Assembly (NCBI RefSeq): GCF_005860765.1
Contig: NZ_VCEI01000011.1
Coordinates: 1,341,819 to 1,405,818 of the forward strand
DNA from: Dyadobacter sediminis
Lineage (GTDB): Bacteria; Bacteroidota; Bacteroidia; Cytophagales; Spirosomataceae
Reading direction: 5' to 3'
DNA length: 64,000 nt
Shown piece after piece: positions 1 to 15,477 of the stretch (position 1 is the stretch's first letter; every line of letters starts with the position of its first letter). Position numbers and translations under genes: made by a program. Below the pieces are notes generated by a model. The model saw only the letters and a list, made by a program, of their open reading frames with translations, had not been told where the DNA came from and did no database searches.

Positions 1-942
1 GAAAACTGGATTGATCATGCAAAAAGCAAGAACAACTGGTTTACACCTGAAAATACCGCGCAGTCGCTGAATGCAATTGCTTCACAATACCTGGATGAAG
101 ACAAACTGACCCAGTGGGCTGCACAATATCCGGAACCGGAATCTGCCAGGAAAATCGGCATTGTCATGGCCGGAAATATTCCTGCGGTGGGTTTTCAGGA
201 TGCGCTTTGTGTACTCATCAGCGGACACATCCTGCTGGCCAAACCCAGCTCGGACGATTTTGTGCTGATCAATGCACTTCTGAACAAACTGATTGATCTG
301 GAACCGGCGTTCGAAGATTACATCCGCTTTGTGGAGCGCCTGAATGATGCAGATGCGTACATTGCCACCGGAAGCGACAATACTGCCCGGTATTTTCATT
401 ATTATTTTGCCAAAAAACCGCATATCATCCGCAAGAACAGAACTTCTGTGGCTGTACTGACAGGCAATGAAACGGATGCAGAACTGAGTGCGCTTGGCCA
501 TGACATTTTACAGTACTTCGGGCTTGGCTGCCGCAATGTTTCCAAATTGTATGTGCCGGAAAAGTATGATTTTACCAGGTTCTATCATGCCATTCAGGAG
601 ATGGACAAAAACTATCTGCATCATCACAAGTACTTTAACAATTACGAGTATAACAAATCCATTTTTCTTGTAAACGCCGTTCCGCATTACGACAATGGCT
701 TTCTTTTACTAAGTGAAAGTGAAGTGCTTGTGTCGGCCATAAGCGTGCTGCATTATGAAACGTATCGCACAATGGATGAAGTAAGCGGCAAGCTGGCAGC
801 TTCTTCGGAAAAAATCCAATGCATTGTCGGAAGCAGCCATCCGCCTCTGCCACAAACCGTTGATTTCGGCAAAGCGCAGATCCCCGGTCTTTTGGATTAT
901 GCCGATGCCGTGGATACGATGGCTTTTCTGGCTGCTTGCTGA
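1..942 (+). CDS. Acyl-CoA reductase, LuxC family (5' end outside window)
   Basis: The frame is open from base 1 to a TGA at 940-942, so the N-terminus lies left of the window and 313 codons are visible. The protein resembles LuxC-type, NAD(P)H-dependent acyl-CoA reductases of the aldehyde dehydrogenase superfamily, which reduce activated acyl groups to aldehydes. The stretch GIVMAGNIPAVGFQD near visible residues 52-66 is the conserved N-terminal core, and the Cys at visible codon 177 in GLGCRNVSKLYVP sits where the family has its thioester nucleophile. It ends directly against the convergent esterase stop (943), with no spacer or terminator. In Bacteroidota such genes are common outside any luminescence context, so the substrate is unknown. 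Confidence 0.85.
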   Translation, partial: ENWIDHAKSKNNWFTPENTAQSLNAIASQYLDEDKLTQWAAQYPEPESARKIGIVMAGNIPAVGFQDALCVLISGHILLAKPSSDDFVLINALLNKLIDLEPAFEDYIRFVERLNDADAYIATGSDNTARYFHYYFAKKPHIIRKNRTSVAVLTGNETDAELSALGHDILQYFGLGCRNVSKLYVPEKYDFTRFYHAIQEMDKNYLHHHKYFNNYEYNKSIFLVNAVPHYDNGFLLLSESEVLVSAISVLHYETYRTMDEVSGKLAASSEKIQCIVGSSHPPLPQTVDFGKAQIPGLLDYADAVDTMAFLAAC

Positions 943-1758
943 TTACCGGTTTTCCTTTCCGAATGCCCATTGCAAAAACTCGGGCAGAACCGCTGACCAG
1001 GTTTTCTGGTTATGTTCCCCGAGTTCCACTTCTGTGTAAAATACATCTTTTTGCCAGACAAAACCTTTTCGTTCCAGTTCCGAAATGCATTCCAGCGTAT
1101 CCTGAATGGAATCAATAACGCCGTCATTATCGCGGTCGTCGTATTCGTCCAGCGATCCGCACTGGAACCAGATCTTCAGCGCTGGCTTTGATGCCGTATT
1201 CCGGATCTGCGCATGCATAATGCGGTCGGCATCGCTGTAACCTTCGTGCAGTGCTTTTTGACGCCACCATAACGCGCCTGAAAATATTCCGGCTTTCGAG
1301 AACAGTCCGGAATGGTTCCAGGCCATATCCAGCGCCATCAATCCGCCCAGCGAAAATCCGGCATAGGTGATTCCGGATGATTTTATATGAAAATGTTCCT
1401 TTAAATAAGGCAGCAGTTCATCCGTAACAAAGCTCGTAGTTGCCTGCGCTTTGCTGCCCCGCCCTGCATAATCGGGCATCATAGCAGTCCCGTACTCAAA
1501 TATCCTTTCCTGGCCGGCGTGAATTCCGGCAACAAGCACCGGAGCCATACGGTTCTCCACCTGCATCCGGGTCAGGATTTCATGCATATGCAACGCCTCG
1601 AAATCCTGCCCGTCGTTAAACAGCAGCAAAGGATAAGTTACAGACGGATTGTAATCCAGCGGAAGAAAAATGGAAATGGCCACTTCTCTTTCCAGAAAAA
1701 AGGAATACAGGTTTTTATGCTGGAATAGGATTTGCTGTTCAGAAAAACTCAAACGCAC
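943..1758 (-). CDS. Alpha/beta-hydrolase, putative esterase (esterase D / Fes type)
   Basis: A 271-residue cytosolic protein with GTG start and no signal peptide. It fits the PF00756 putative esterase family (esterase D, enterochelin esterase): a beta-strand ending in LLFNDGQD (46-52), the nucleophile elbow GFSLGG with Ser136, an acidic stretch around DEYDDRDNDG and a C-terminal His in GEHNQ as probable triad member. It hydrolyses an ester or thioester; the substrate cannot be read from sequence. It is divergent from a second alpha/beta hydrolase that heads the amidoligase cluster, with a gap of about 108 bp, so the two may share control. Its stop abuts the acyl-CoA reductase stop. Confidence 0.8.
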   Translation of the reverse strand: MRLSFSEQQILFQHKNLYSFFLEREVAISIFLPLDYNPSVTYPLLLFNDGQDFEALHMHEILTRMQVENRMAPVLVAGIHAGQERIFEYGTAMMPDYAGRGSKAQATTSFVTDELLPYLKEHFHIKSSGITYAGFSLGGLMALDMAWNHSGLFSKAGIFSGALWWRQKALHEGYSDADRIMHAQIRNTASKPALKIWFQCGSLDEYDDRDNDGVIDSIQDTLECISELERKGFVWQKDVFYTEVELGEHNQKTWSAVLPEFLQWAFGKENR

Positions 1759-1866: not shown

Positions 1867-2574
1867 TTGGAAGAGAAGCATTTTAAATATTACTCTCATC
1901 ATCTCGACAGAGACGTTGATATGCTTGTTTACGGAAGCTGGGGCTATCCGGTACTTGTTTTCCCTACAACCCTCGGCCGCTATTATCAAGCCAAAGATAT
2001 GGGCCTCATCGACAGCGTGCGCAAACAGATTGAGTCCGGAAAATACAAGCTGTACTGTGTAGATTCCATAGATGCGGATTCCTGGTATGCAAAGCATCTC
2101 AATCCGCAATATCGGGTTCTGAATCATATGCAGTACGACAAATTCCTGCACAACGAACTGGTTCCTTTTATCAAAAACGAATGTAAAGTGGAAAAAATCG
2201 GCGTTGCGGGATGCAGCTTCGGAGGTTTTCATGCTGCCAATTACGCCTTCCGTCATCCGGACATGGTCGCTTATCTGATCAGCATGAGCGGTGCATTCGA
2301 TATCAGGAGCTTTACCGATGGATTTTACGACGACACGGTCTATTTCAATAATCCCGTCGATTTTATGCCGAATGAACAGGGCTGGCGGTACGGGCATATG
2401 AAAATCGTGCTCGGAACTTCGGACTGGGACATTTGCCTGGACAGCAATTTGAAAATGTCAGGCATTCTCAGCAACAACGGAATAGATCACTGGCTGGATG
2501 TGCGCGGCTGGGAAAAGCACGATTGGCCGCTCTGGCATAAAATGTTTCCGGATTACTTGTCACGTATCATGTAA
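1867..2574 (+). CDS. Alpha/beta-hydrolase, esterase-like, first gene of the amidoligase cluster
   Basis: About 236 residues in the esterase D-like alpha/beta hydrolase fold. The elbow GCSFGG places the nucleophile at Ser117, and the C-terminal GWEKHDWPLWH carries the likely catalytic His. No ATG occurs before residue DVDM. I chose TTG at 1867 because the protein then begins MEEKHFKYYSHHL, as relatives do as far as I recall; the frame is open upstream to a TTG at 1822, but that would add a hydrophobic stretch unlike the family. Sixty-six bases separate it from the ATP-grasp gene. Being first in this operon suggests it trims, releases or prepares a peptide- or ester-linked intermediate; that is inference. 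Confidence 0.75.
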   Translation: MEEKHFKYYSHHLDRDVDMLVYGSWGYPVLVFPTTLGRYYQAKDMGLIDSVRKQIESGKYKLYCVDSIDADSWYAKHLNPQYRVLNHMQYDKFLHNELVPFIKNECKVEKIGVAGCSFGGFHAANYAFRHPDMVAYLISMSGAFDIRSFTDGFYDDTVYFNNPVDFMPNEQGWRYGHMKIVLGTSDWDICLDSNLKMSGILSNNGIDHWLDVRGWEKHDWPLWHKMFPDYLSRIM

Positions 2575-2640
2575 AACCGTATTTACAGATATTTCCATTA
2601 AAAAGTGAAAATGCTGGCTTAAACATAACAGTACTATTGT

Positions 2641-3801
2641 ATGAAAAAAATCGGAATATTGTTTGGAATGGAAAATACGTTTCCGAACGCATTTATTGAA
2701 AGAGTAAACAGTAAAGCCGTGGACGGGATTATTGCCGAAGCTGTATCCATTGATAAAGTTGTTCAGGCGGATCCAACGGAATATGCCGTTATCATTGACC
2801 GTATTTCACAGGACGTGCCGTTTTACCGGGCATATCTTAAAAATGCAGCCTTGTCCGGGACTGCAGTTATCAATAATCCGTTCTGGTGGAGCGCCGACGA
2901 AAAGTTTTTCAACAATGCACTCGCCGAAAAAATCGGGGTTCCGGTTCCAAAAACCGTACTGCTGCCTTCCAGGGAACGTCCTGAAAATACTTCCGAAACT
3001 TCTTTCCGAAACCTTGCCTATCCCATGGCCTGGGAAGAAATTTTTCAGTATGTAGGTTTTCCGGCCTATATGAAGCCGCATGACGGCGGAGGCTGGAAAA
3101 GTGTTTATAAAGTTGTGAACCCGCAGGATATGTGGCACAAACACCAGGAAACCGGACATCTTGTTATGATGTTGCAGGAAGAAGTTGTTTTTGATGACTA
3201 TTTCCGCTGCTACTGCATCGGGCAAAAAGATGTGCTCATTATGCCTTACGAACCCAGAAACCCGCATCATCTGAGGTATGCTGCCGAAATAAAAGCCACG
3301 GGCGAAGAAAGAGAAAAACTGCTCGAAACCGTTCGTGATTATACTATGAAGCTGAATGTGGCCTTGGGCTATGACTTCAATACCGTAGAGTTTGCAGTAC
3401 GCGACGGCATTCCGGTTGCTATTGATTTCTGTAATCCTGCACCGGACGCGGACATTTATTCCGTAGGTCCCGACAATTTTGAATGGGTTGTGGAAGCCGC
3501 GGCAAACATGGCCATTGAACGTGCTCAAAAGCATGTTCCCGGACAATCAAACCTGACCTGGGGAACATTTGTGAAAGATGCAATTGGCACGCCGCAGATG
3601 GCTGCCCAGTCGACGGCTGCACCGGCACCGGAACCGTCTGCAAAAGAAGTTAAAGTAAAATCTGTCGCGCCTAAAAAAGCACTGAAGCCGGTTGAAGACA
3701 AAGGATTTGAAACAATTACGGAGCCTGCTCCTAAAATTCCAACCAAAAAGGCAGCTGCTACCAAAGCGCCGGCAGAAAATTCCAAGTTGAAAAAATCCTA
3801 A
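2641..3801 (+). CDS. ATP-grasp amide ligase with Ala/Lys/Pro-rich C-terminal tail
   Basis: A 386-residue ATP-grasp protein of the RimK/glutathione-synthase-like type, which activates a carboxylate as acyl phosphate and joins it to an amine. Visible motifs are the ATP-lysine region PAYMKPHDGGGW (Lys145, Gly149-151), the strand MMLQEEVVFDDYFRCYC, and the metal-binding residues Glu250 (NTVEFAV) and Asp262/Asn265 (IDFCNPAPD). The fold ends near residue 310; the last 60-70 residues form a low-complexity tail rich in Ala, Pro, Lys and Glu, probably disordered. ATG start, 27 bp before the carboxylate-amine ligase gene. Two ATP-dependent ligases side by side point to stepwise amide-bond formation. 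The substrates are unknown. Confidence 0.85.
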   Translation: MKKIGILFGMENTFPNAFIERVNSKAVDGIIAEAVSIDKVVQADPTEYAVIIDRISQDVPFYRAYLKNAALSGTAVINNPFWWSADEKFFNNALAEKIGVPVPKTVLLPSRERPENTSETSFRNLAYPMAWEEIFQYVGFPAYMKPHDGGGWKSVYKVVNPQDMWHKHQETGHLVMMLQEEVVFDDYFRCYCIGQKDVLIMPYEPRNPHHLRYAAEIKATGEEREKLLETVRDYTMKLNVALGYDFNTVEFAVRDGIPVAIDFCNPAPDADIYSVGPDNFEWVVEAAANMAIERAQKHVPGQSNLTWGTFVKDAIGTPQMAAQSTAAPAPEPSAKEVKVKSVAPKKALKPVEDKGFETITEPAPKIPTKKAAATKAPAENSKLKKS

Positions 3802-3828
3802 CCAATCATTTCAGCGCAGCTTTTTATT

Positions 3829-4929
3829 ATGGCAACTTTCACTCTGGGAATTGAAGAAGAATTTCAGACCATTGATCCCGTCACGCGCAATTTGCGGTCG
3901 CATATGTCCAAGCTTGTGGAGGACGGGAAAATCACACTTAAGGAAAGAGTAAAAGCAGAAATGCATCAGGCGGTTGTGGAAGTAGGGACAAATATCTGCC
4001 ATAATATTCAGGAAGCGCGTGAAGAGGTCACTTACCTAAGGAAAATGATTCTGGACCTTGCGGAAAAACAAAATCTGCAGGTTGCCGCAGCCGGAACGCA
4101 TCCTTTTGCCGACTGGGTGGAACAACTCATTACGCCCGATCCGCGCTATGACGAGATTATTGATGAAATGCGCGATGTCGCTCGCGGAAATCTCATCTTC
4201 GGCCTGCATGTGCATGTCGGGATTGAAAGCCGGAACGAAGGCATTGAGATTATGAACGCCGTACGGTATTTTCTGCCGCATATTTATGCATTATCGACCA
4301 ATTCGCCATTCTGGTGCGGCAGAAATACCGGTTTCAAATCCTACCGTTCCAAGGTTTTTGATAAATTTCCAAGAACCGGAATTCCTGATTTTTTTGCAAG
4401 TGCATCGGAATACGATGAATATGTCGCATTGCTGATCAAGACCAAATGTATTGACAACGGCAAGAAAATCTGGTGGGATATCCGGCTGCACCCGTTTTTC
4501 AACACCATTGAATTCCGTATGTGCGACGTTCCCATGCGAACGGACGAAACCATTTGTCTGGCCGCCATTATGCAGGCGCTTGTGGCCAAAATTCATAAAC
4601 TGCACCGTATGAACCTCAGCTTCCGGCCTTATCACCGGATGCTGATCAATGAAAACAAATGGCGCGCTGCACGGTACGGAATTCACGGCAAACTCATTGA
4701 TTTCGGTAAACAGGAAGAAGTCGAATACAGTATTCTTGTGGAGGAACTGCTGGAATTTATTGATGACGTTGTAGACGAACTCGGCAGCAGACATGAAATC
4801 AGTTACATCCATGAAATCATGCGCATGGGCACCGGCGCGGACCGTCAGCTTGCTGTTTTTGATCAAACCGGAAATATGAGCGCCGTTGTGGATTATATTG
4901 TTTCTGAAACCAAAGTCGGGTTGTATTAA
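3829..4929 (+). CDS. Carboxylate-amine ligase, GCS2 family (YbdK-like)
   Basis: 366 residues of the type-2 glutamate-cysteine-ligase family (PF04107, glutamine-synthetase-like fold). Recognisable elements are GIEEEFQ (7-13), with the metal-binding glutamates, MHQAVVEVGT, FGLHVHVGI and SPFWCGRNTGFKSYR. Members use ATP to couple an amino-acid carboxylate to an amine; E. coli YbdK has weak glutamate-cysteine ligase activity. Here the gene lies between an ATP-grasp ligase and a glutamine amidotransferase, so it probably makes one bond of a short non-ribosomal product rather than glutathione. A 100-bp gap with a hairpin follows before the next gene. The true substrate is not visible. Confidence 0.88.
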   Translation: MATFTLGIEEEFQTIDPVTRNLRSHMSKLVEDGKITLKERVKAEMHQAVVEVGTNICHNIQEAREEVTYLRKMILDLAEKQNLQVAAAGTHPFADWVEQLITPDPRYDEIIDEMRDVARGNLIFGLHVHVGIESRNEGIEIMNAVRYFLPHIYALSTNSPFWCGRNTGFKSYRSKVFDKFPRTGIPDFFASASEYDEYVALLIKTKCIDNGKKIWWDIRLHPFFNTIEFRMCDVPMRTDETICLAAIMQALVAKIHKLHRMNLSFRPYHRMLINENKWRAARYGIHGKLIDFGKQEEVEYSILVEELLEFIDDVVDELGSRHEISYIHEIMRMGTGADRQLAVFDQTGNMSAVVDYIVSETKVGLY

Positions 4930-4998
4930 AATTCAATCGGAGTGTGAATTTATTGACCATAAATGTGTTAACCTTATTTACACTTTCTTAAAACTAAA

Positions 4999-5021
4999 AG
5001 CTGAGTGCATTGCATTCAGCT
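4999..5021 (+). promoter_or_regulatory. Hairpin just upstream of the amidotransferase start codon
   Basis: Two 11-nt arms flank a single T; they differ from perfect complementarity by one G-U pair. The structure ends 8 nt before the ATG at 5030, in the only gap of about 100 bp inside the operon, and no T-run follows. It is better explained as an mRNA structure (processing, stabilisation or translational control) than as a terminator. Function is inferred. Confidence 0.45.
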
Positions 5022-5029
5022 ATTATAAA

Positions 5030-5893
5030 ATGAACACGAACCATAAACATTTCCATATTGCGATCCTCGATATGTACAGCGGGGTGGACAATGAAGGAAT
5101 GCGCTGCATCAAAAAGATCATTACGGCATTCGGTGAGCAGGAAGCCATTCCTGTAACTTATACAATTTTCGACGTACGACAGAAGCTTGAAGTTCCGGGC
5201 ATGGAATTCGATGCCTACATTTCAACCGGCGGGCCCGGAAATCCGTCGCCAGTCGGCGAAGCATGGGAACGCAAGTTTTTTAATTTTCTGGACCAGCTTC
5301 TGCACTTTAATCAAAACCGCCGCAACCGCACCAAAAAACATCTGTTCCTGATTTGTCATTCCTTTCAGATGGCATGCATTCACTGGCAGCTTGCAGCAGT
5401 AAGCAAAAGAAGAAAAACGTCATTCGGTACTTTTCCTGTGCATAAGACACTTGCCGGCAGAAAAGATCCGCTTCTGAACGCACTTGAAGACCCTTTTTAT
5501 ATTGTCGATTCCAGAGATTTTCAGGTGACGCAGCCGAATCAGCAAGTGTTTGAAAGCATGGGCGCCAAGCTGCTTTGTCTTGAAAAAATCCGTCCGCATG
5601 TCCCGCTGGAACGCGCTGTGATGGCGATCCGGTTCAGCAATGAGATTGTGGGAACGCAGTTTCATCCCGAAGCAGATGCCGAAGGGATGCTGCGGTATTT
5701 TTTAAGAGAAGACAAAAAAACAAGTATCATTGCCAATTACGGCGAGGCCAAATACAGTGATATGATCCGTCATCTGAATGACCCTGAAAAAATTGTGCGG
5801 ACCGAAGCAGTTATCATTTCGTCTTTTCTGAAAAATGCTTACCTGAAAACTGCTGTTCCGCCAGTAGACGCACAACTGGCTCAAACTTTGTAA
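5030..5893 (+). CDS. Class I glutamine amidotransferase (GMP-synthase GATase-like)
   Basis: 287 residues from the ATG at 5030; the upstream in-frame extension overlaps the preceding gene and the hairpin, so I reject it. It has the class I GATase triad: Cys109 in FLICHSFQMA, and His212 and Glu214 in GTQFHPEAD, plus the oxyanion strand STGGPGNPSP. Such domains release ammonia from glutamine for a partner enzyme. No synthetase domain is fused, so a neighbour, probably one of the ATP-grasp enzymes, would be the acceptor. The nucleophile elbow reads CHSFQ where the common pattern is GxCxGxQ, a noticeable deviation. It could instead hydrolyse a gamma-glutamyl bond. It is followed after 18 bp by the second ATP-grasp-like gene. 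Confidence 0.82.
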   Translation: MNTNHKHFHIAILDMYSGVDNEGMRCIKKIITAFGEQEAIPVTYTIFDVRQKLEVPGMEFDAYISTGGPGNPSPVGEAWERKFFNFLDQLLHFNQNRRNRTKKHLFLICHSFQMACIHWQLAAVSKRRKTSFGTFPVHKTLAGRKDPLLNALEDPFYIVDSRDFQVTQPNQQVFESMGAKLLCLEKIRPHVPLERAVMAIRFSNEIVGTQFHPEADAEGMLRYFLREDKKTSIIANYGEAKYSDMIRHLNDPEKIVRTEAVIISSFLKNAYLKTAVPPVDAQLAQTL

Positions 5894-5911
5894 TCAATTC
5901 AAGCTGATAAT

Positions 5912-7105
5912 ATGCAAAAGGAAGCACGCGAGGCTTACAATCAATCGTTTACGGAAAACAGATATCAGGAATTTCTGAACGCTTTTGAAGTTGATTTTCC
6001 CGGACAGCTGGATTTCAGAATTGCAGAAACGCCTGTTTTTATTCCCGCTGAGCTCAAAAACAAGATTATACAGGCTTCGGATGAAATTATAGATTCGCTA
6101 CTGTCGCCGGACTTCAAAGAAAAAACAGACCGTGCAGTTCCTGTAAATGAATCGGTGCCGAATGAAAATGCGCATACTTCTTTTCTGGCCATTGATTTTG
6201 CAATTTGTAAAAACGATTCCGGCGAATTGTTTCCCCAGCTGATCGAGCTTCAGGGATTTCCGTCTTTATACGGTTATCAGGCTTATTTGTCTGAACAGTT
6301 CCGAAAATACTTTGATACGCCTGCCGATTTCCAGTACTGCTTCGGCGCAGAATCCTATGAAGCATATGTAAGTAAACTACGGAACCTGATCGTTGCCGGC
6401 GAAAACCCGGAAGAAGTTATTTTACTTGAAATTTTTCCGGAGAAACAAAAAACCCGCATTGATTTTGCCATTACGGAACGAATGCTGGGCATCAAGGCGG
6501 TTTGTTATACCAAGCTGATCCGCGAAGGAAGGAAGTTGTATTATGAAAGCAACGGAAGAAAAATTCAGGTCAAAAGAATTTATAACCGGCTCATTTTTGA
6601 TGATCTAAAAAATTATCCGGACCTGGAAACCAGCTATCGTTTTACCGATGATGTGGACGTGGAGTGGGTCGGGCATCCCAACTGGTTTTTTCGGATCAGT
6701 AAATTTGCCTTGCCGTTCCTGAAAAGCAGTTTTGTCCCGGAAACCGATTTTGTCAGCAATTACAACGGCCGCTTTCCGGCAGATCTGGAAAGTTATGTGT
6801 TGAAACCATTGTTCTCCTTTGCCGGCTCCGGCGTTCAGCTGCATGTCTCGCAAGAGCTGCTCAGAGCAATCCCAGACCCTGAAAATTACATTCTGCAGAA
6901 AAAAGTAAGATACGAACCGGTTATTCAGGCCCCGGACGGACTGGTCAAATGCGAGATCAGGATGATGTACGGCTGGAACGATTCCGCAGAAAAACCGGAA
7001 TTGCTGATTAGTTTAAGCCGTTTGAGCCGTGGAGAAATGATCGGTGTGGATTATAATAAAAATTTCACCTGGGTCGGAGGAAGCGCTACATTTTTCGAAA
7101 AGTAA
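5912..7105 (+). CDS. Divergent ATP-grasp-like ligase
   Basis: A 397-residue protein without close relatives that I can name. Its central part (LIELQGFPSLYGYQ near 108-121; EIFPEKQKTRIDF near 173-185) and C-terminal part (YVLKPLFSFAGSGV near 294-307; NYILQKKVRYEPVI near 324-337; KCEIRMMYGW) look like an ATP-grasp fold. The Lys-Pro-Leu plus Gly-rich loop would hold ATP, and the glutamates after it would bind metal. The order recalls circularly permuted ATP-grasp or glutathionylspermidine-synthase-like enzymes, but I cannot prove the permutation. It lies 18 bp after the amidotransferase and 4 bp before the aminotransferase, so it is almost certainly co-translated with them. A ligase role is inferred from fold and context. 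Confidence 0.7.
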   Translation: MQKEAREAYNQSFTENRYQEFLNAFEVDFPGQLDFRIAETPVFIPAELKNKIIQASDEIIDSLLSPDFKEKTDRAVPVNESVPNENAHTSFLAIDFAICKNDSGELFPQLIELQGFPSLYGYQAYLSEQFRKYFDTPADFQYCFGAESYEAYVSKLRNLIVAGENPEEVILLEIFPEKQKTRIDFAITERMLGIKAVCYTKLIREGRKLYYESNGRKIQVKRIYNRLIFDDLKNYPDLETSYRFTDDVDVEWVGHPNWFFRISKFALPFLKSSFVPETDFVSNYNGRFPADLESYVLKPLFSFAGSGVQLHVSQELLRAIPDPENYILQKKVRYEPVIQAPDGLVKCEIRMMYGWNDSAEKPELLISLSRLSRGEMIGVDYNKNFTWVGGSATFFEK

Positions 7106-7109
7106 CATC

Positions 7110-8321
7110 ATGCACATTACACATCGCCAGCATTTTTTTGATCATTTGGCACAAACATCTGATTATCCGCTGGCACTGGAAATTGATAAAGCCGAAGGCA
7201 TTTACATGTATAGTCCGGATGGAAAGCGTTACATGGATCTTATTTCCGGAATTGCCGTCAGCAACGTCGGGCACAGGCACCCGAAAGTGCTTGAAGCCAT
7301 TCATAATCAGCTTGACAAACACATGCATTTACTGGTTTACGGCGAATTTGTCCAGAGTTCCCAGGTGCAGCTTGCAGCTTCTCTGGCCAGTACACTGAAT
7401 TCTGCACCGGAAACTATGTCGCCGTTCGGAGCTATTGATAATGTCTATTTTACCAATTCGGGAGCCGAAGCGGTGGAAGGCTCCATGAAACTGGCCAAGC
7501 GTTTTACCGGACGTTCGGAATTCATTTCCTGCTACAATGCCTATCACGGCGCGACACAAGGCGCCCTGAGCCTTGCCGGAGCCGAGTTCTTTAAAAACAG
7601 TTTTCGTCCGCTGCTTCCGGAAACCAAGCATATCAGGCATGGATATATACCGGATATTGAAAAAATCACTGAAAAAACAGCAGCTGTTGTCATTGAAGTA
7701 ATCGGCGGCGAATCAGGCGTAAGGATTCCTGGCTCCGAGTATTTTCCGGCATTGCGCGCCCGGTGCACGGAAACCGGCACGTTGCTGATCGTGGATGAAA
7801 TCCAGACCGGATTCGGACGTACGGGCACTTTCTGGGCATTTGAACAATTCGGTTTTTACCCTGATATTTTGCTGAGCGCCAAAGGCATGGGCGGCGGAAT
7901 GCCGATCGGCGCCTTTATGGCTTCGCATGAAATTATGCAGGTTCTGAAATCGAAACCTATTCTCGGGCACATTACTACATTCGGCGGCCATCCGGTAAGC
8001 TGCGCTTCTTCACTCGCCGCTCTGAACGTCACGCTGGACGAAGATCTTGCTGCCAAGGCAGTGGAAAAAGGGGCGCTTTTCAAATCCCTGCTTGTTCACC
8101 CGAAAATCAGCGAGGTAAGAGGAAAAGGGCTGATGCTTGCAGCGCAAATGGACTCTTTTGAAATCTTGAAAGATACGATCGATCAATGCATTGAAAAAGG
8201 CGTGATTACGGACTGGTTTTTATTTTGTGACAATGCCATGCGCATTGCGCCTCCGCTGACTATTTCAGAAGAGCAGATTACCGAAGCGTGCCATGTTATT
8301 CTTGAAGTTCTGGATAGCTGA
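7110..8321 (+). CDS. Class III PLP-dependent aminotransferase
   Basis: 403 residues from the ATG at 7110, 4 bp after the previous stop; the longer open frame upstream overlaps the ATP-grasp-like gene and is not needed. It has the class III signature: NVYFTNSGAEAVEGSMK, the Asp of IVDEIQTGFGRTG that contacts PLP, and the Schiff-base lysine Lys258 in LLSAKGMGGGMPIG. Relatives use omega-amino acids, ornithine, diamines or 4-aminobutyrate. As last gene of the cluster it may provide, or remove, the amine that the ligases use. No terminator is evident in the 108 bp before the next gene. Confidence 0.88.
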   Translation: MHITHRQHFFDHLAQTSDYPLALEIDKAEGIYMYSPDGKRYMDLISGIAVSNVGHRHPKVLEAIHNQLDKHMHLLVYGEFVQSSQVQLAASLASTLNSAPETMSPFGAIDNVYFTNSGAEAVEGSMKLAKRFTGRSEFISCYNAYHGATQGALSLAGAEFFKNSFRPLLPETKHIRHGYIPDIEKITEKTAAVVIEVIGGESGVRIPGSEYFPALRARCTETGTLLIVDEIQTGFGRTGTFWAFEQFGFYPDILLSAKGMGGGMPIGAFMASHEIMQVLKSKPILGHITTFGGHPVSCASSLAALNVTLDEDLAAKAVEKGALFKSLLVHPKISEVRGKGLMLAAQMDSFEILKDTIDQCIEKGVITDWFLFCDNAMRIAPPLTISEEQITEACHVILEVLDS

Positions 8322-9306: not shown

Positions 9307-9702
9307 TTATAGTTCAATAGCCAGCAATTCATTTCCGAGACGGTGTAGCGCCGTCTCAATTTTTTTGATCTGTACAGCCCGTGGTTTTTTCAAACCGGAA
9401 GCATAATGATTCAACTGCTTTTCATTAATACCGGTCAGTTTGGCAATGCCCTTTTGATTGAAAATTCCTTTGTAATATTCAAGGAGACTTTCAACATCCA
9501 GTTTCCAGACTATTTCGTATTCACCTTTAAGAACCGCGGGAATATTCTTTGCCGGAAAAGTTTTAATCAATTCAATGCATTCCAGTACTGAAGCTTTTGC
9601 CTCCTGTACGGTATCCCCCGCTCCGGTAATCATTTTCACATTTTCAGCAAATGCTGCATAATTATCTTTCCCGCGACTGATGATAACTTTTATTTTCTTC
9701 AT
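9307..9702 (-). CDS. hicB: HicB-type antitoxin with C-terminal DNA-binding helix
   Basis: 131 residues. The N-terminal half is a HicB fold (degraded RNase H): ISRGKDNYAAFAENV, then GAGDTVQEAKASVLECIELI. The C-terminal third (NQKGIAKLTGINEKQLNHYA) is an XRE-like helix-turn-helix. The protein would neutralise HicA and repress its own promoter. It lies 3 bp downstream of hicA, the usual order for this pair. Its stop lies 1 bp from the convergent epimerase stop. Confidence 0.85.
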   Translation of the reverse strand: MKKIKVIISRGKDNYAAFAENVKMITGAGDTVQEAKASVLECIELIKTFPAKNIPAVLKGEYEIVWKLDVESLLEYYKGIFNQKGIAKLTGINEKQLNHYASGLKKPRAVQIKKIETALHRLGNELLAIEL

Positions 9703-14959: not shown

Positions 14960-15154
14960 ATGAACGTCCAATTTTTGTCAAACGAAAAAGGAAAAAAGAC
15001 CGCCGTTGTGATACCGATCAAGGATTGGGAAGAGATTCAGAAAAAGCTGAAGAAAGAAAAACTCGTTGAATCTTTAAGCCAGTCTGTCAAGGAAATGAAA
15101 ATGATGAAAGCAGGCAAAATGGCAGAACCTGAAATTAACGATCTGTTTGAATGA
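14960..15154 (+). CDS. Small antitoxin of a RelE-type toxin-antitoxin pair
   Basis: 64 residues. The N-terminal part (MNVQFLSNEKGKKTAVVIPI, then KDWEEIQKKL) resembles the strand-helix DNA-binding start of PHD/YefM-like antitoxins and of Bacteroidota RelB-type partners. The rest is charged and ends in acidic residues that could wrap the toxin. Its stop overlaps the start of the next gene (ATGA, 15151-15154), the classical coupled arrangement. Antitoxin identity rests mainly on size, order and overlap. Confidence 0.72.
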   Translation: MNVQFLSNEKGKKTAVVIPIKDWEEIQKKLKKEKLVESLSQSVKEMKMMKAGKMAEPEINDLFE

Positions 15155-15477
15155 TTAAAATCACTTACACACCAGAATTTAAAAAAGAATACAAAAGACT
15201 TTCTAAAAAATTTCCATCTCCTGAATCTGATATAAAACTGCTTATTGAAGAATTGTATAAAAATCCGACACTTGGAAAATCACTCGGATCGCACGCTTAC
15301 AAGATAAGATGTCAGGTTAAAAGCAAAGGAAAAGGCAAAAGCGGCGGAGTAAGGATTATCACGTACTATCTTGAAGAAGATTACAAAATTTATTTATTAA
15401 ATATCTACGACAAATCTGAAAGACAGTCGATTTCAGCCAAGCAGATTCGCGATCTGATCCAATCTGTAACGGATTAA
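15151..15477 (+). CDS. RelE/ParE-superfamily toxin
   Basis: 108 residues. The start IKITYTPEFKKEYKRLSKKFP is the standard helix-rich opening of RelE/ParE toxins. The central Lys/Arg-rich stretch (KSKGKGKSGGVRIITYYL) and the final YLLNIYDKSERQSI match the fold's core strands. Such toxins cut ribosome-bound mRNA (RelE) or block gyrase (ParE); the many basic residues favour the RelE side. It overlaps its antitoxin by 4 bp and precedes trpS by 29 bp. Confidence 0.82.
   Translation: MIKITYTPEFKKEYKRLSKKFPSPESDIKLLIEELYKNPTLGKSLGSHAYKIRCQVKSKGKGKSGGVRIITYYLEEDYKIYLLNIYDKSERQSISAKQIRDLIQSVTD

What the first reader, a model, noticed from the sequence alone, without database searches (positions are those of the whole stretch)
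1867..8321. Six-gene amidoligase cluster predicted to make an unknown amide- or peptide-bonded metabolite
Co-directional genes encode an esterase-like hydrolase, an ATP-grasp ligase, a GCS2-type carboxylate-amine ligase, a class I glutamine amidotransferase, a second ATP-grasp-like protein and a class III aminotransferase. Gaps of 4, 18 and 27 bp show tight coupling for most of them. Two or three independent ATP-dependent C-N ligases, an ammonia source and an amine-handling transaminase suggest stepwise non-ribosomal assembly without NRPS genes. No known pathway (glutathione, cyanophycin, purine) matches the set. Families are established; the pathway is inference.
Basis: partly seen in the sequence, partly recalled or inferred. 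Interest (0 to 1): 0.8.

Follow-up and report, generated by a model that had tools for sequence, protein, structure and literature searches.

The report
Dedicated peptide-ligase gene set of Bacteroidota
Five neighbouring genes in this bacterium form a set of stand-alone amide-bond-making and bond-cutting enzymes that recurs in about a third of the sampled genomes of its phylum and probably makes a small peptide-like compound that is still unidentified, while the sixth gene first counted with it looks like an ordinary household gene.

Summary
The genes are really there (window 1867-8321; nearest named relatives are Dyadobacter), with the gaps reported. Five of the six (esterase A, ATP-grasp B, YbdK-type ligase C, GATase-fold D, second ATP-grasp E) behave as one unit. 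In 345 sampled Bacteroidota genomes, B occurs with E, or with a circularly permuted ATP-grasp that stands in for E, in 114 of 118, even where the genes are unlinked. C was found in 41 of 47 chosen carriers and 1 of 33 chosen non-carriers. Aminotransferase F was found in all 40 same-class genomes tested, carriers or not, so it is probably a bystander. A further partner lies outside the window: an L-amino-acid-ligase-type ATP-grasp beside an M17 aminopeptidase (25 of 47 carriers, 0 of 33 non-carriers). In several lineages an M29 aminopeptidase-like gene takes D's slot, so D is more likely a trimming hydrolase than an ammonia source. E has the fold of glutathione and glutathionylspermidine synthetases and YgiC. 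Best reading: stepwise NRPS-independent assembly and trimming of a short, perhaps gamma-glutamyl, peptide or peptidyl-amine. Product unknown.

The parts
943..1758 (-). Est0: divergent PF00756 esterase, conserved neighbour
   Evidence: PF00756 E 6e-35; near the cluster and divergent in 36 of 40 own-family loci; an Est0-type match (over 150 bits) near B in 42 of 80 named loci and 5 of 37 loci of other families
1867..2574 (+). A: PF00756-type alpha/beta hydrolase (start TTG 1867 likely; the ORF opens at 1822)
   Evidence: PF00756 E 1e-9; S117, D188, D211, H218 in 99% or more of 120 rows, numbered from the 1867 start
2641..3801 (+). B: stand-alone ATP-grasp ligase (Ddl/ArgX/RimK fold), marker of the system
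   Evidence: AlphaFold model against Ddl/ArgX/RimK, E 2e-13 and weaker; in 118 of 345 Bacteroidota genomes; K145, E250, D262, N265 in 99% of 155 rows
3829..4929 (+). C: GCS2/YbdK-type carboxylate-amine ligase (predicted gamma-glutamyl ligase)
   Evidence: PF04107, NF010039 over cut-off; PDB YbdK 1r8g E 5e-65; 41 of 47 chosen carriers, 1 of 33 chosen non-carriers
5030..5893 (+). D: class I GATase-fold enzyme with Cys-His-Glu triad, predicted trimming (gamma-glutamyl) hydrolase
   Evidence: PF00117 E 3.5e-6; C109, H212, E214 in all 112 rows; 75 of 345 genomes, all of which also have E or its stand-in; slot taken by an M29-type gene elsewhere
5912..7105 (+). E: ATP-grasp ligase of the GSS/GspS/YgiC (circularly permuted) fold
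   Evidence: Model pLDDT 90; VIA-align Z 26.1 to YgiC, 24.4 to GspS, 23.5 to yeast GSS, 21.8 to Cp1B; in 103 of 345 genomes
7110..8321 (+). F: class III aminotransferase, judged NOT part of the system (probable housekeeping passenger)
   Evidence: Match at E 1e-100 or better in 40 of 40 same-class genomes, carriers or not; beside the cluster in 27 of 40 own-family loci, 0 of 37 loci of other families, 15 of 80 named loci

Best explanation
A-B-C-D-E, with the divergent esterase Est0 and an unlinked M17 aminopeptidase plus L-amino-acid-ligase pair (own genome G000:C12), is a dedicated Bacteroidota system. It builds a short peptide or peptidyl-amine metabolite with stand-alone ligases and trims or recycles it with hydrolases. 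Proposed order (inferred): the L-amino-acid ligase makes a dipeptide where present; C caps an amine with a gamma-glutamyl group; B and E, by acyl-phosphate chemistry, add further amino-acid or amine units, E in the manner of glutathione or glutathionylspermidine synthetase; D removes the gamma-glutamyl (or another N-terminal) group, a job done by an M29 aminopeptidase-like enzyme in some relatives; the esterases act on an ester or thioester form. Shown here: presence, conservation, co-occurrence, fold matches of models, conserved putative catalytic residues, exchange of D and M29 in one gene slot. Inferred: substrates, order, product, and that D is a hydrolase.
For: Co-occurrence in 345 genomes: B with E or its stand-in in 114 of 118; all 75 D genomes have E or its stand-in. 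C in 41 of 47 carriers against 1 of 33 non-carriers. L-amino-acid-ligase type in 25 of 47 against 0 of 33, next to M17 in the own genome, PDB match L-amino acid ligase 4wd3 E 4e-25. A-B-C-D-E in that order in one stretch in 32 of 40 own-family loci; all five near B in 54 of 80 named loci. E's stand-in, a CP_ATPgrasp_2 protein (PF14403; PDB match 3n6x), is in all 15 genomes with D but no E. A PF02073/AmpS-like gene lies in D's slot in 7 loci; strong matches occur in 8 of 345 genomes, none with D, including G400 against G392 and G335 of one family; on the B tree the M29 state needs at least 2 changes on well-supported branches. E fold. Precedent: Cp1B, a GSS-fold ATP-grasp making a pseudodipeptide without an NRPS (PMC12568646, passages).
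Against: No substrate, product or activity is known for any member. Outside the own family the full five-gene linkage is rarer: 5 of 37 loci of other families. C is missing in 6 of 47 carriers tested, D and M29 are both missing in 35 of 103 E carriers, and the L-amino-acid ligase in 22 of 47, so neither a gamma-glutamyl cap nor trimming by D can be obligatory. D against M29 over all 345 genomes is not significant (Fisher p 0.21); within E carriers the chance of no overlap is 0.0006; both ignore relatedness. E has no Pfam match and only a weak sequence match to YgiC (E 0.0017). A shared slot is not a shared reaction; in G307 the M29 gene is not beside B, C or E.
Confidence: 0.55

Rival explanations
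1. D is a true glutaminase subunit: it releases ammonia from glutamine, which one of the ligases uses to make a primary amide.
For: PF00117 match; Cys-His-Glu triad in all rows; best NCBIfam hits are glutamine amidotransferases, though far below cut-off (35.9 bits against 264).
Against: In 8 genomes E occurs with an M29 aminopeptidase-like gene and no D; in 35 more E carriers there is neither. The nucleophile elbow reads (I/L/F)-I-C-H-S-(F/Y)-Q or close to it instead of the G-x-C-x-G-x-Q that I recall for class I GATases.
Confidence: 0.2
2. The enzymes modify a protein or cell-surface polymer (RimK- or tubulin-ligase-like tagging and de-tagging) rather than make a free metabolite; D, M29 and M17 would be de-taggers.
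For: B's model matches RimK and ArgX among others; peptidases are recurrent partners.
Against: Among the 28 most recurrent neighbour groups of 92 loci (ORFs of 70 codons or more), the small proteins (ferredoxin- and thioredoxin-like, a 99-aa and an 80-aa protein) each occur in at most 11 loci, all close relatives; C and the L-amino-acid-ligase homologue belong to families known from small-molecule substrates.
Confidence: 0.15
3. Specific version of the best explanation: a glutathione- or trypanothione-like thiol or polyamine conjugate, gamma-Glu-X from C, extended or amidated by E, degraded by D and M17.
For: C is related to plant glutamate-cysteine ligases (weakly) and YbdK (strongly), and E has the GSS/GspS fold; gamma-glutamyl hydrolysis followed by M17 cleavage would mirror glutathione breakdown (recalled knowledge).
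Against: I recognised no cysteine or polyamine enzyme by eye among the 28 most recurrent neighbour groups, not all of which were annotated; some carriers lack C; thiol or polyamine specificity was not tested.
Confidence: 0.15
4. An accessory of cyanophycin or beta-aspartyl peptide metabolism.
For: In several Chryseobacterium loci and in Halpernia the cluster adjoins cyanophycin synthetase, cyanophycinase and a beta-aspartyl-peptidase-like gene; 6 of 8 Hymenobacter loci have a cyanophycinase-like gene within 10 kb.
Against: Cyanophycinase over cut-off in 17 of 47 carriers and 9 of 33 non-carriers, and no match in the window's own genome.
Confidence: 0.04

Closest known systems
E-64 pathway ligase Cp1B and other NRPS-independent ATP-grasp peptide pathways (dapdiamide, cystargolide, rhizocticin, bacilysin/BacD)
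   Same: Stand-alone ligases assemble a short peptide without NRPS; E has Cp1B's fold (Z 21.8); the unlinked ligase matches L-amino-acid ligases and BacD.
   Different: I recognised no warhead-forming or resistance gene among the 28 most recurrent neighbour groups (by eye); about a third of sampled genomes of the phylum have it; a gamma-glutamyl-type ligase and hydrolases are part of the set.
Glutathione, glutathionylspermidine and trypanothione synthesis (GSS, GspS) and YgiC/YjfC (called peptidylpolyamine synthetases in PMC12568646)
   Same: GCS2-type ligase (C) plus a GSS/GspS/YgiC-fold ligase (E).
   Different: E shares 9-16% identity with these structures; one or two more ATP-grasp ligases and a GATase-fold or M29 enzyme accompany it; substrates unknown.
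Gamma-glutamylation and deblocking routes with a class I GATase-fold hydrolase (Puu pathway PuuD; plant GGP1), recalled
   Same: Ligase adds gamma-glutamyl, GATase-fold enzyme removes it.
   Different: No oxidase or aldehyde dehydrogenase was recognised among recurrent neighbours (by eye); the ligase is GCS2, not glutamine-synthetase-like; the class III aminotransferase here does not track the system.
Amidoligase neighbourhoods predicted by Iyer et al. 2009 (Mol Biosyst 5:1636), recalled, not readable here
   Same: Context networks of ATP-grasp and GCS2 ligases with peptidases (recalled).
   Different: Whether this exact neighbourhood is in that paper could not be checked.

Membership tests
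GCS2 / YbdK carboxylate-amine ligases (C) | PF04107 domain over gathering score and equivalog model over cut-off | tested here: met
   PF04107 210 bits against 21; NF010039 556 against 371; PDB YbdK 1r8g E 5e-65
GCS2 / YbdK carboxylate-amine ligases (C) | ATP-dependent gamma-glutamyl ligation in vitro | not testable with these tools
   needs purified protein
GSS / GspS / YgiC circularly permuted ATP-grasp (E) | Whole-length fold match | tested here: met
   Z 26.1, rmsd 3.5 over 342 residues to YgiC; 24.4 GspS; 23.5 yeast GSS; apart from 3k1t at 12.7 the next fold group is at Z 8.3 or below
GSS / GspS / YgiC circularly permuted ATP-grasp (E) | Pfam or NCBIfam sequence model over cut-off | tested here: not met
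   no Pfam or NCBIfam hit for E at E 0.001; its stand-in c16 does meet PF14403 (37.3 against 32)
Class I glutamine amidotransferase (D) | PF00117 with Cys-His-Glu triad | tested here: met
   27.2 bits against 22.8; C109/H212/E214 in all 112 rows
Class I glutamine amidotransferase (D) | Canonical G-x-C-x-G-x-Q nucleophile elbow (motif recalled) | tested here: not met
   I-C-H-S-(F/Y)-Q in all 23 aligned rows, with no Gly two before or two after the Cys
Class I glutamine amidotransferase (D) | Delivers ammonia to a partner synthetase | tested here: inconclusive
   the M29 exchange and absence of both in 35 of 103 E carriers argue against it; no biochemistry
L-amino acid ligase (unlinked partner, G000:C12:491850-493046) | Sequence profile match to solved L-amino acid ligases | tested here: met
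   profile of 11 homologues, 4wd3 E 4e-25, 3vot 3e-12, BacD 7e-9; the own-genome copy matches that profile at E 1e-189
Peptidase M29 (c23, D's stand-in) | PF02073 over cut-off | tested here: met
   55.8 and 53.4 bits against 27 for two of the four rows; profile of four rows against AmpS 1zjc E 2e-6; only positions 204-371 of the 406-position model are covered
Cyanophycin system | Cyanophycinase in the same genome | tested here: not met
   none in G000 at E 1e-15; 17 of 47 carriers, 9 of 33 non-carriers
Graspetide (RiPP) cluster | Short precursor-peptide gene beside the ATP-grasp gene | tested here: inconclusive
   no small ORF of 70 codons or more recurs beyond close relatives among the 28 most recurrent groups; shorter ORFs were not surveyed
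Glutathione biosynthesis | GshA plus GshB, or GshF, in the genome | not tested

The most novel reading that the evidence does not exclude
About a third of Bacteroidota species make an undiscovered small peptide cofactor or conjugate typical of the phylum: a gamma-glutamyl peptide, perhaps carrying a polyamine or thiol like glutathione or trypanothione. It would be assembled by up to four stand-alone ligases and turned over by exchangeable trimming enzymes (GATase-fold D or M29).
Probability: 0.2. Interest if true: 0.85.

Novelty: new variant of a known kind. Interest (0 to 1): 0.6.

Why it matters
Enzymes that co-occur this strictly in a third of a phylum sample are expected to share one job, yet no product is known to me, and none turned up in the listings of the paper searches. 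The result is a short, testable gene list, including an unlinked L-amino-acid ligase that reading this window alone would miss. It also suggests two corrections: the 'glutamine amidotransferase' is probably a trimming hydrolase, and the aminotransferase a bystander. If the product is a glutathione-like cofactor or conjugate, it would fill a gap in the redox, amine or storage chemistry of a large phylum.

Tried and rejected
Cyanophycin link: attractive from Chryseobacterium loci, rejected as a general role (17 of 47 carriers against 9 of 33 non-carriers; no match in the own genome). Aminotransferase as a member: rejected. Defence system: no PADLOC match for 7 proteins. Mobile element: no plasmid match for B or D. 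A distant match for c16 on ten plasmids, of which three were viewed, and 69 plasmid records matching C, of which two were viewed. An 872-883-residue neighbour in some relatives, first suspected to be CphA, did not match CphA.

Literature: ten full-text searches, of which I saw the listings; none of the listed titles and abstracts describes this set. I saw passages of four papers and read none whole. Iyer et al. 2009 is not held, so an earlier prediction there is not excluded. That plant GGP1 is of the class I GATase fold was sought in PMC3042935 and not found there; it is recalled, as is PuuD.

Limits. c16 was searched in 74 of the 345 sampled genomes only. Genome-wide co-occurrence of A and Est0 was not tested. 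One quick B tree, 20 of its 39 inner branches weakly supported. In the 80-genome tests I chose 47 carriers for family spread, and 33 non-carriers: 16 of the same class, and 17 of other classes taken from the list; this is not a random draw. Rows dropped: L035 from the tree (no B ORF called), 3 of 40 own-family and 3 of 40 other-family loci (no B ORF called). Loci cut by contig ends stayed in the counts and lower them. An earlier count gave F as 43 of 43 (27 + 16); the right count is 40 of 40 (24 + 16).
Full report
WHAT IS THERE. The six ORFs lie where reported, all on the + strand. Likely starts are TTG 1867 (A), ATG 2641 (B), ATG 3829 (C), ATG 5030 (D), ATG 5912 (E) and ATG 7110 (F); gaps are 66, 27, 100, 18 and 4 bp. 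The window is G000:C1:1341819-1405818 of a 6.2 Mb genome. The closest named relatives of B are Dyadobacter. Library matches: A is a PF00756 esterase, C is PF04107/GCS2 and exceeds the PRK13515 carboxylate-amine ligase cut-off, D is PF00117, F is PF00202; B and E have no Pfam match.

FOLDS AND ACTIVE SITES. B's model (mean pLDDT 78, low-confidence tail after about residue 307) matches D-Ala-D-Ala ligase, ArgX and RimK. E's model (pLDDT 90) matches YgiC (Z 26.1), glutathionylspermidine synthetase (24.4), yeast glutathione synthetase (23.5) and the E-64 ligase Cp1B (21.8) over its whole length. Residues expected to be catalytic are near-invariant across orthologues: C109/H212/E214 in D (112 rows), E112/Q114/K298/E348 in E (108 rows), E250/D262/N265 in B (155 rows), E9-E11 and H127/H129 in C (119 rows). 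Which of them are catalytic is by analogy with recalled family knowledge.

CONSERVATION. Among 101 genomes of the own family, 88 have B. In 40 wide own-family loci, A is present in 39, C in 35, D in 33, E in 32 (one cut by a contig end), F in 27 and Est0 in 36; A to E lie in that order in one stretch in 32 (counted by hand). By a stricter count on called ORFs, all five are near B in 28 of 37 own-family, 54 of 80 named and 5 of 37 other-family loci, so tight linkage is strongest near home. In 345 genomes of the phylum, B is in 118, E in 103 and D in 75. B occurs with E or its stand-in c16 in 114 of 118; the four exceptions are among the lowest-scoring B hits. E or c16 occurs with B in 114 of 118. 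All 75 D genomes have E or c16. Fisher p-values ignore relatedness, and c16 was searched in 74 of the 345 genomes. In several genomes the parts are all present but D, E or both are unlinked from B (G226, G367, G135).

STAND-INS. In all 15 genomes with D but no E, a CP_ATPgrasp_2 protein (c16) is present; one further genome, G237, has both E and c16. An M29 aminopeptidase-like gene (c23) lies after C, before E, in D's slot in 7 loci (L119, L122, L132, L133, L248, L249, L250). Strong c23 matches (over 500 bits) occur in 8 of 345 genomes; all 8 have E and none has D. Over all 345 genomes this avoidance is not significant (Fisher p 0.21); among the 103 E carriers the chance of no overlap is 0.0006; both ignore relatedness. 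Within one family, G400 has B-C-M29-E while G392 and G335 have B-C-D-E. On a B tree of 42 rows, M29 needs 5 changes, at least 2 of them forced by well-supported branches. In G307 the M29 gene is not beside B, C or E. Weaker M29 homologues (132 bits or less) are common, also in non-carriers and in genomes with D, and are not counted. This exchange is the main reason to doubt that D supplies ammonia.

WHAT DOES NOT BELONG. A search with F in 80 chosen genomes (47 carriers, 33 non-carriers) finds a match at E 1e-100 or better, taken as the orthologue, in 40 of 40 genomes of the window's class (24 carriers, 16 non-carriers) and in 9 of the 40 others (5 carriers, 4 non-carriers). F is thus independent of the system. 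F beside the cluster: 27 of 40 own-family loci, 0 of 37 loci of other families with B called, 15 of 80 named loci.

WHAT WAS MISSED. Beside the cluster in Chryseobacterium, Elizabethkingia and kin, and near it in some Flavobacterium, Polaribacter and Saprospiraceae loci, lie an ATP-grasp of L-amino-acid-ligase type (28 of 92 loci with three or more core genes) and an M17 aminopeptidase (25 of 92). The ligase is in 25 of the 47 carriers and none of the 33 non-carriers. In the window's own genome it is on contig C12 at 491850-493046, right after an M17 gene. C was found in 41 of 47 carriers and 1 of 33 non-carriers (G104, 307 bits). The carriers lacking C are G137, G164, G113, G283, G318 and G130.

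HOW IT MOST LIKELY WORKS. Shown: a co-occurring set of two to four amide-ligase-type proteins with hydrolase-type partners. Inferred: acyl-phosphate ligation by B, C, E and the L-amino-acid ligase builds a short peptide or peptidyl-amine, with C adding a gamma-glutamyl unit, and D (or M29) and M17 trimming it. The direction (biosynthesis with deblocking, or synthesis and turnover) is open. Cyanophycin was considered because of adjacency in Chryseobacterium and closeness in Hymenobacter and rejected as general. The missing isoaspartyl dipeptidase that PMC10206079 notes for Bacteroidota (passages) is a different question.

COMPARISON WITH THE KNOWN. The closest mechanistic precedent found is the E-64 pathway, where a GSS-fold ATP-grasp enzyme and an amide bond synthetase join three building blocks without an NRPS (PMC12568646, passages). 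That paper names YgiC and YjfC, as peptidylpolyamine synthetases, among the structural homologues of Cp1B. The graspetide survey (PMC8939145, passages) does not contain the terms GCS2 or COG2170. Iyer et al. 2009, the most likely place for an earlier prediction, is not held.

VERDICT. Novelty: new variant of a known kind, with the product unknown.

Noticed in passing
window 1-942 (+): The end of a LuxC-like acyl-CoA reductase gene precedes the cluster; with a ferredoxin-like gene (by eye) upstream it recurs near the cluster in Dyadobacter and some relatives.
   Followed up: partly
L198:14529-19197 and the matching parts of L108, L177, L186, L191, L194, L208: In several Chryseobacterium loci and in Halpernia the cluster adjoins cyanophycin synthetase, cyanophycinase and a beta-aspartyl-peptidase-like gene.
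   Followed up: yes
L247:3723-10453 (Selenomonas ruminantium plasmid pSRC2): A glutamate-cysteine-ligase-family gene, a MATE exporter, the c16-like CP-ATP-grasp match (annotated hypothetical) and an alpha/beta hydrolase lie in one co-directional stretch: a possible exported analogue of the C plus E pairing.
   Followed up: no
L256, L259, L260 (genomes G323, G170, G224): Where D is unlinked in this family, it is followed in three loci by similar-sized genes (514-528 aa <, 248-249 aa >, 321-337 aa <) that were not identified.
   Followed up: no
genome G237: The only one of the 74 genomes searched for c16 that has both E and c16.
   Followed up: no
window 9307-9702 (-) and 15151-15477 (+): Small ORFs that look by eye like a HicB-type protein with a helix-turn-helix (weak RstR match) and a RelE/ParE-like protein; possible toxin-antitoxin pieces.
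   Followed up: no
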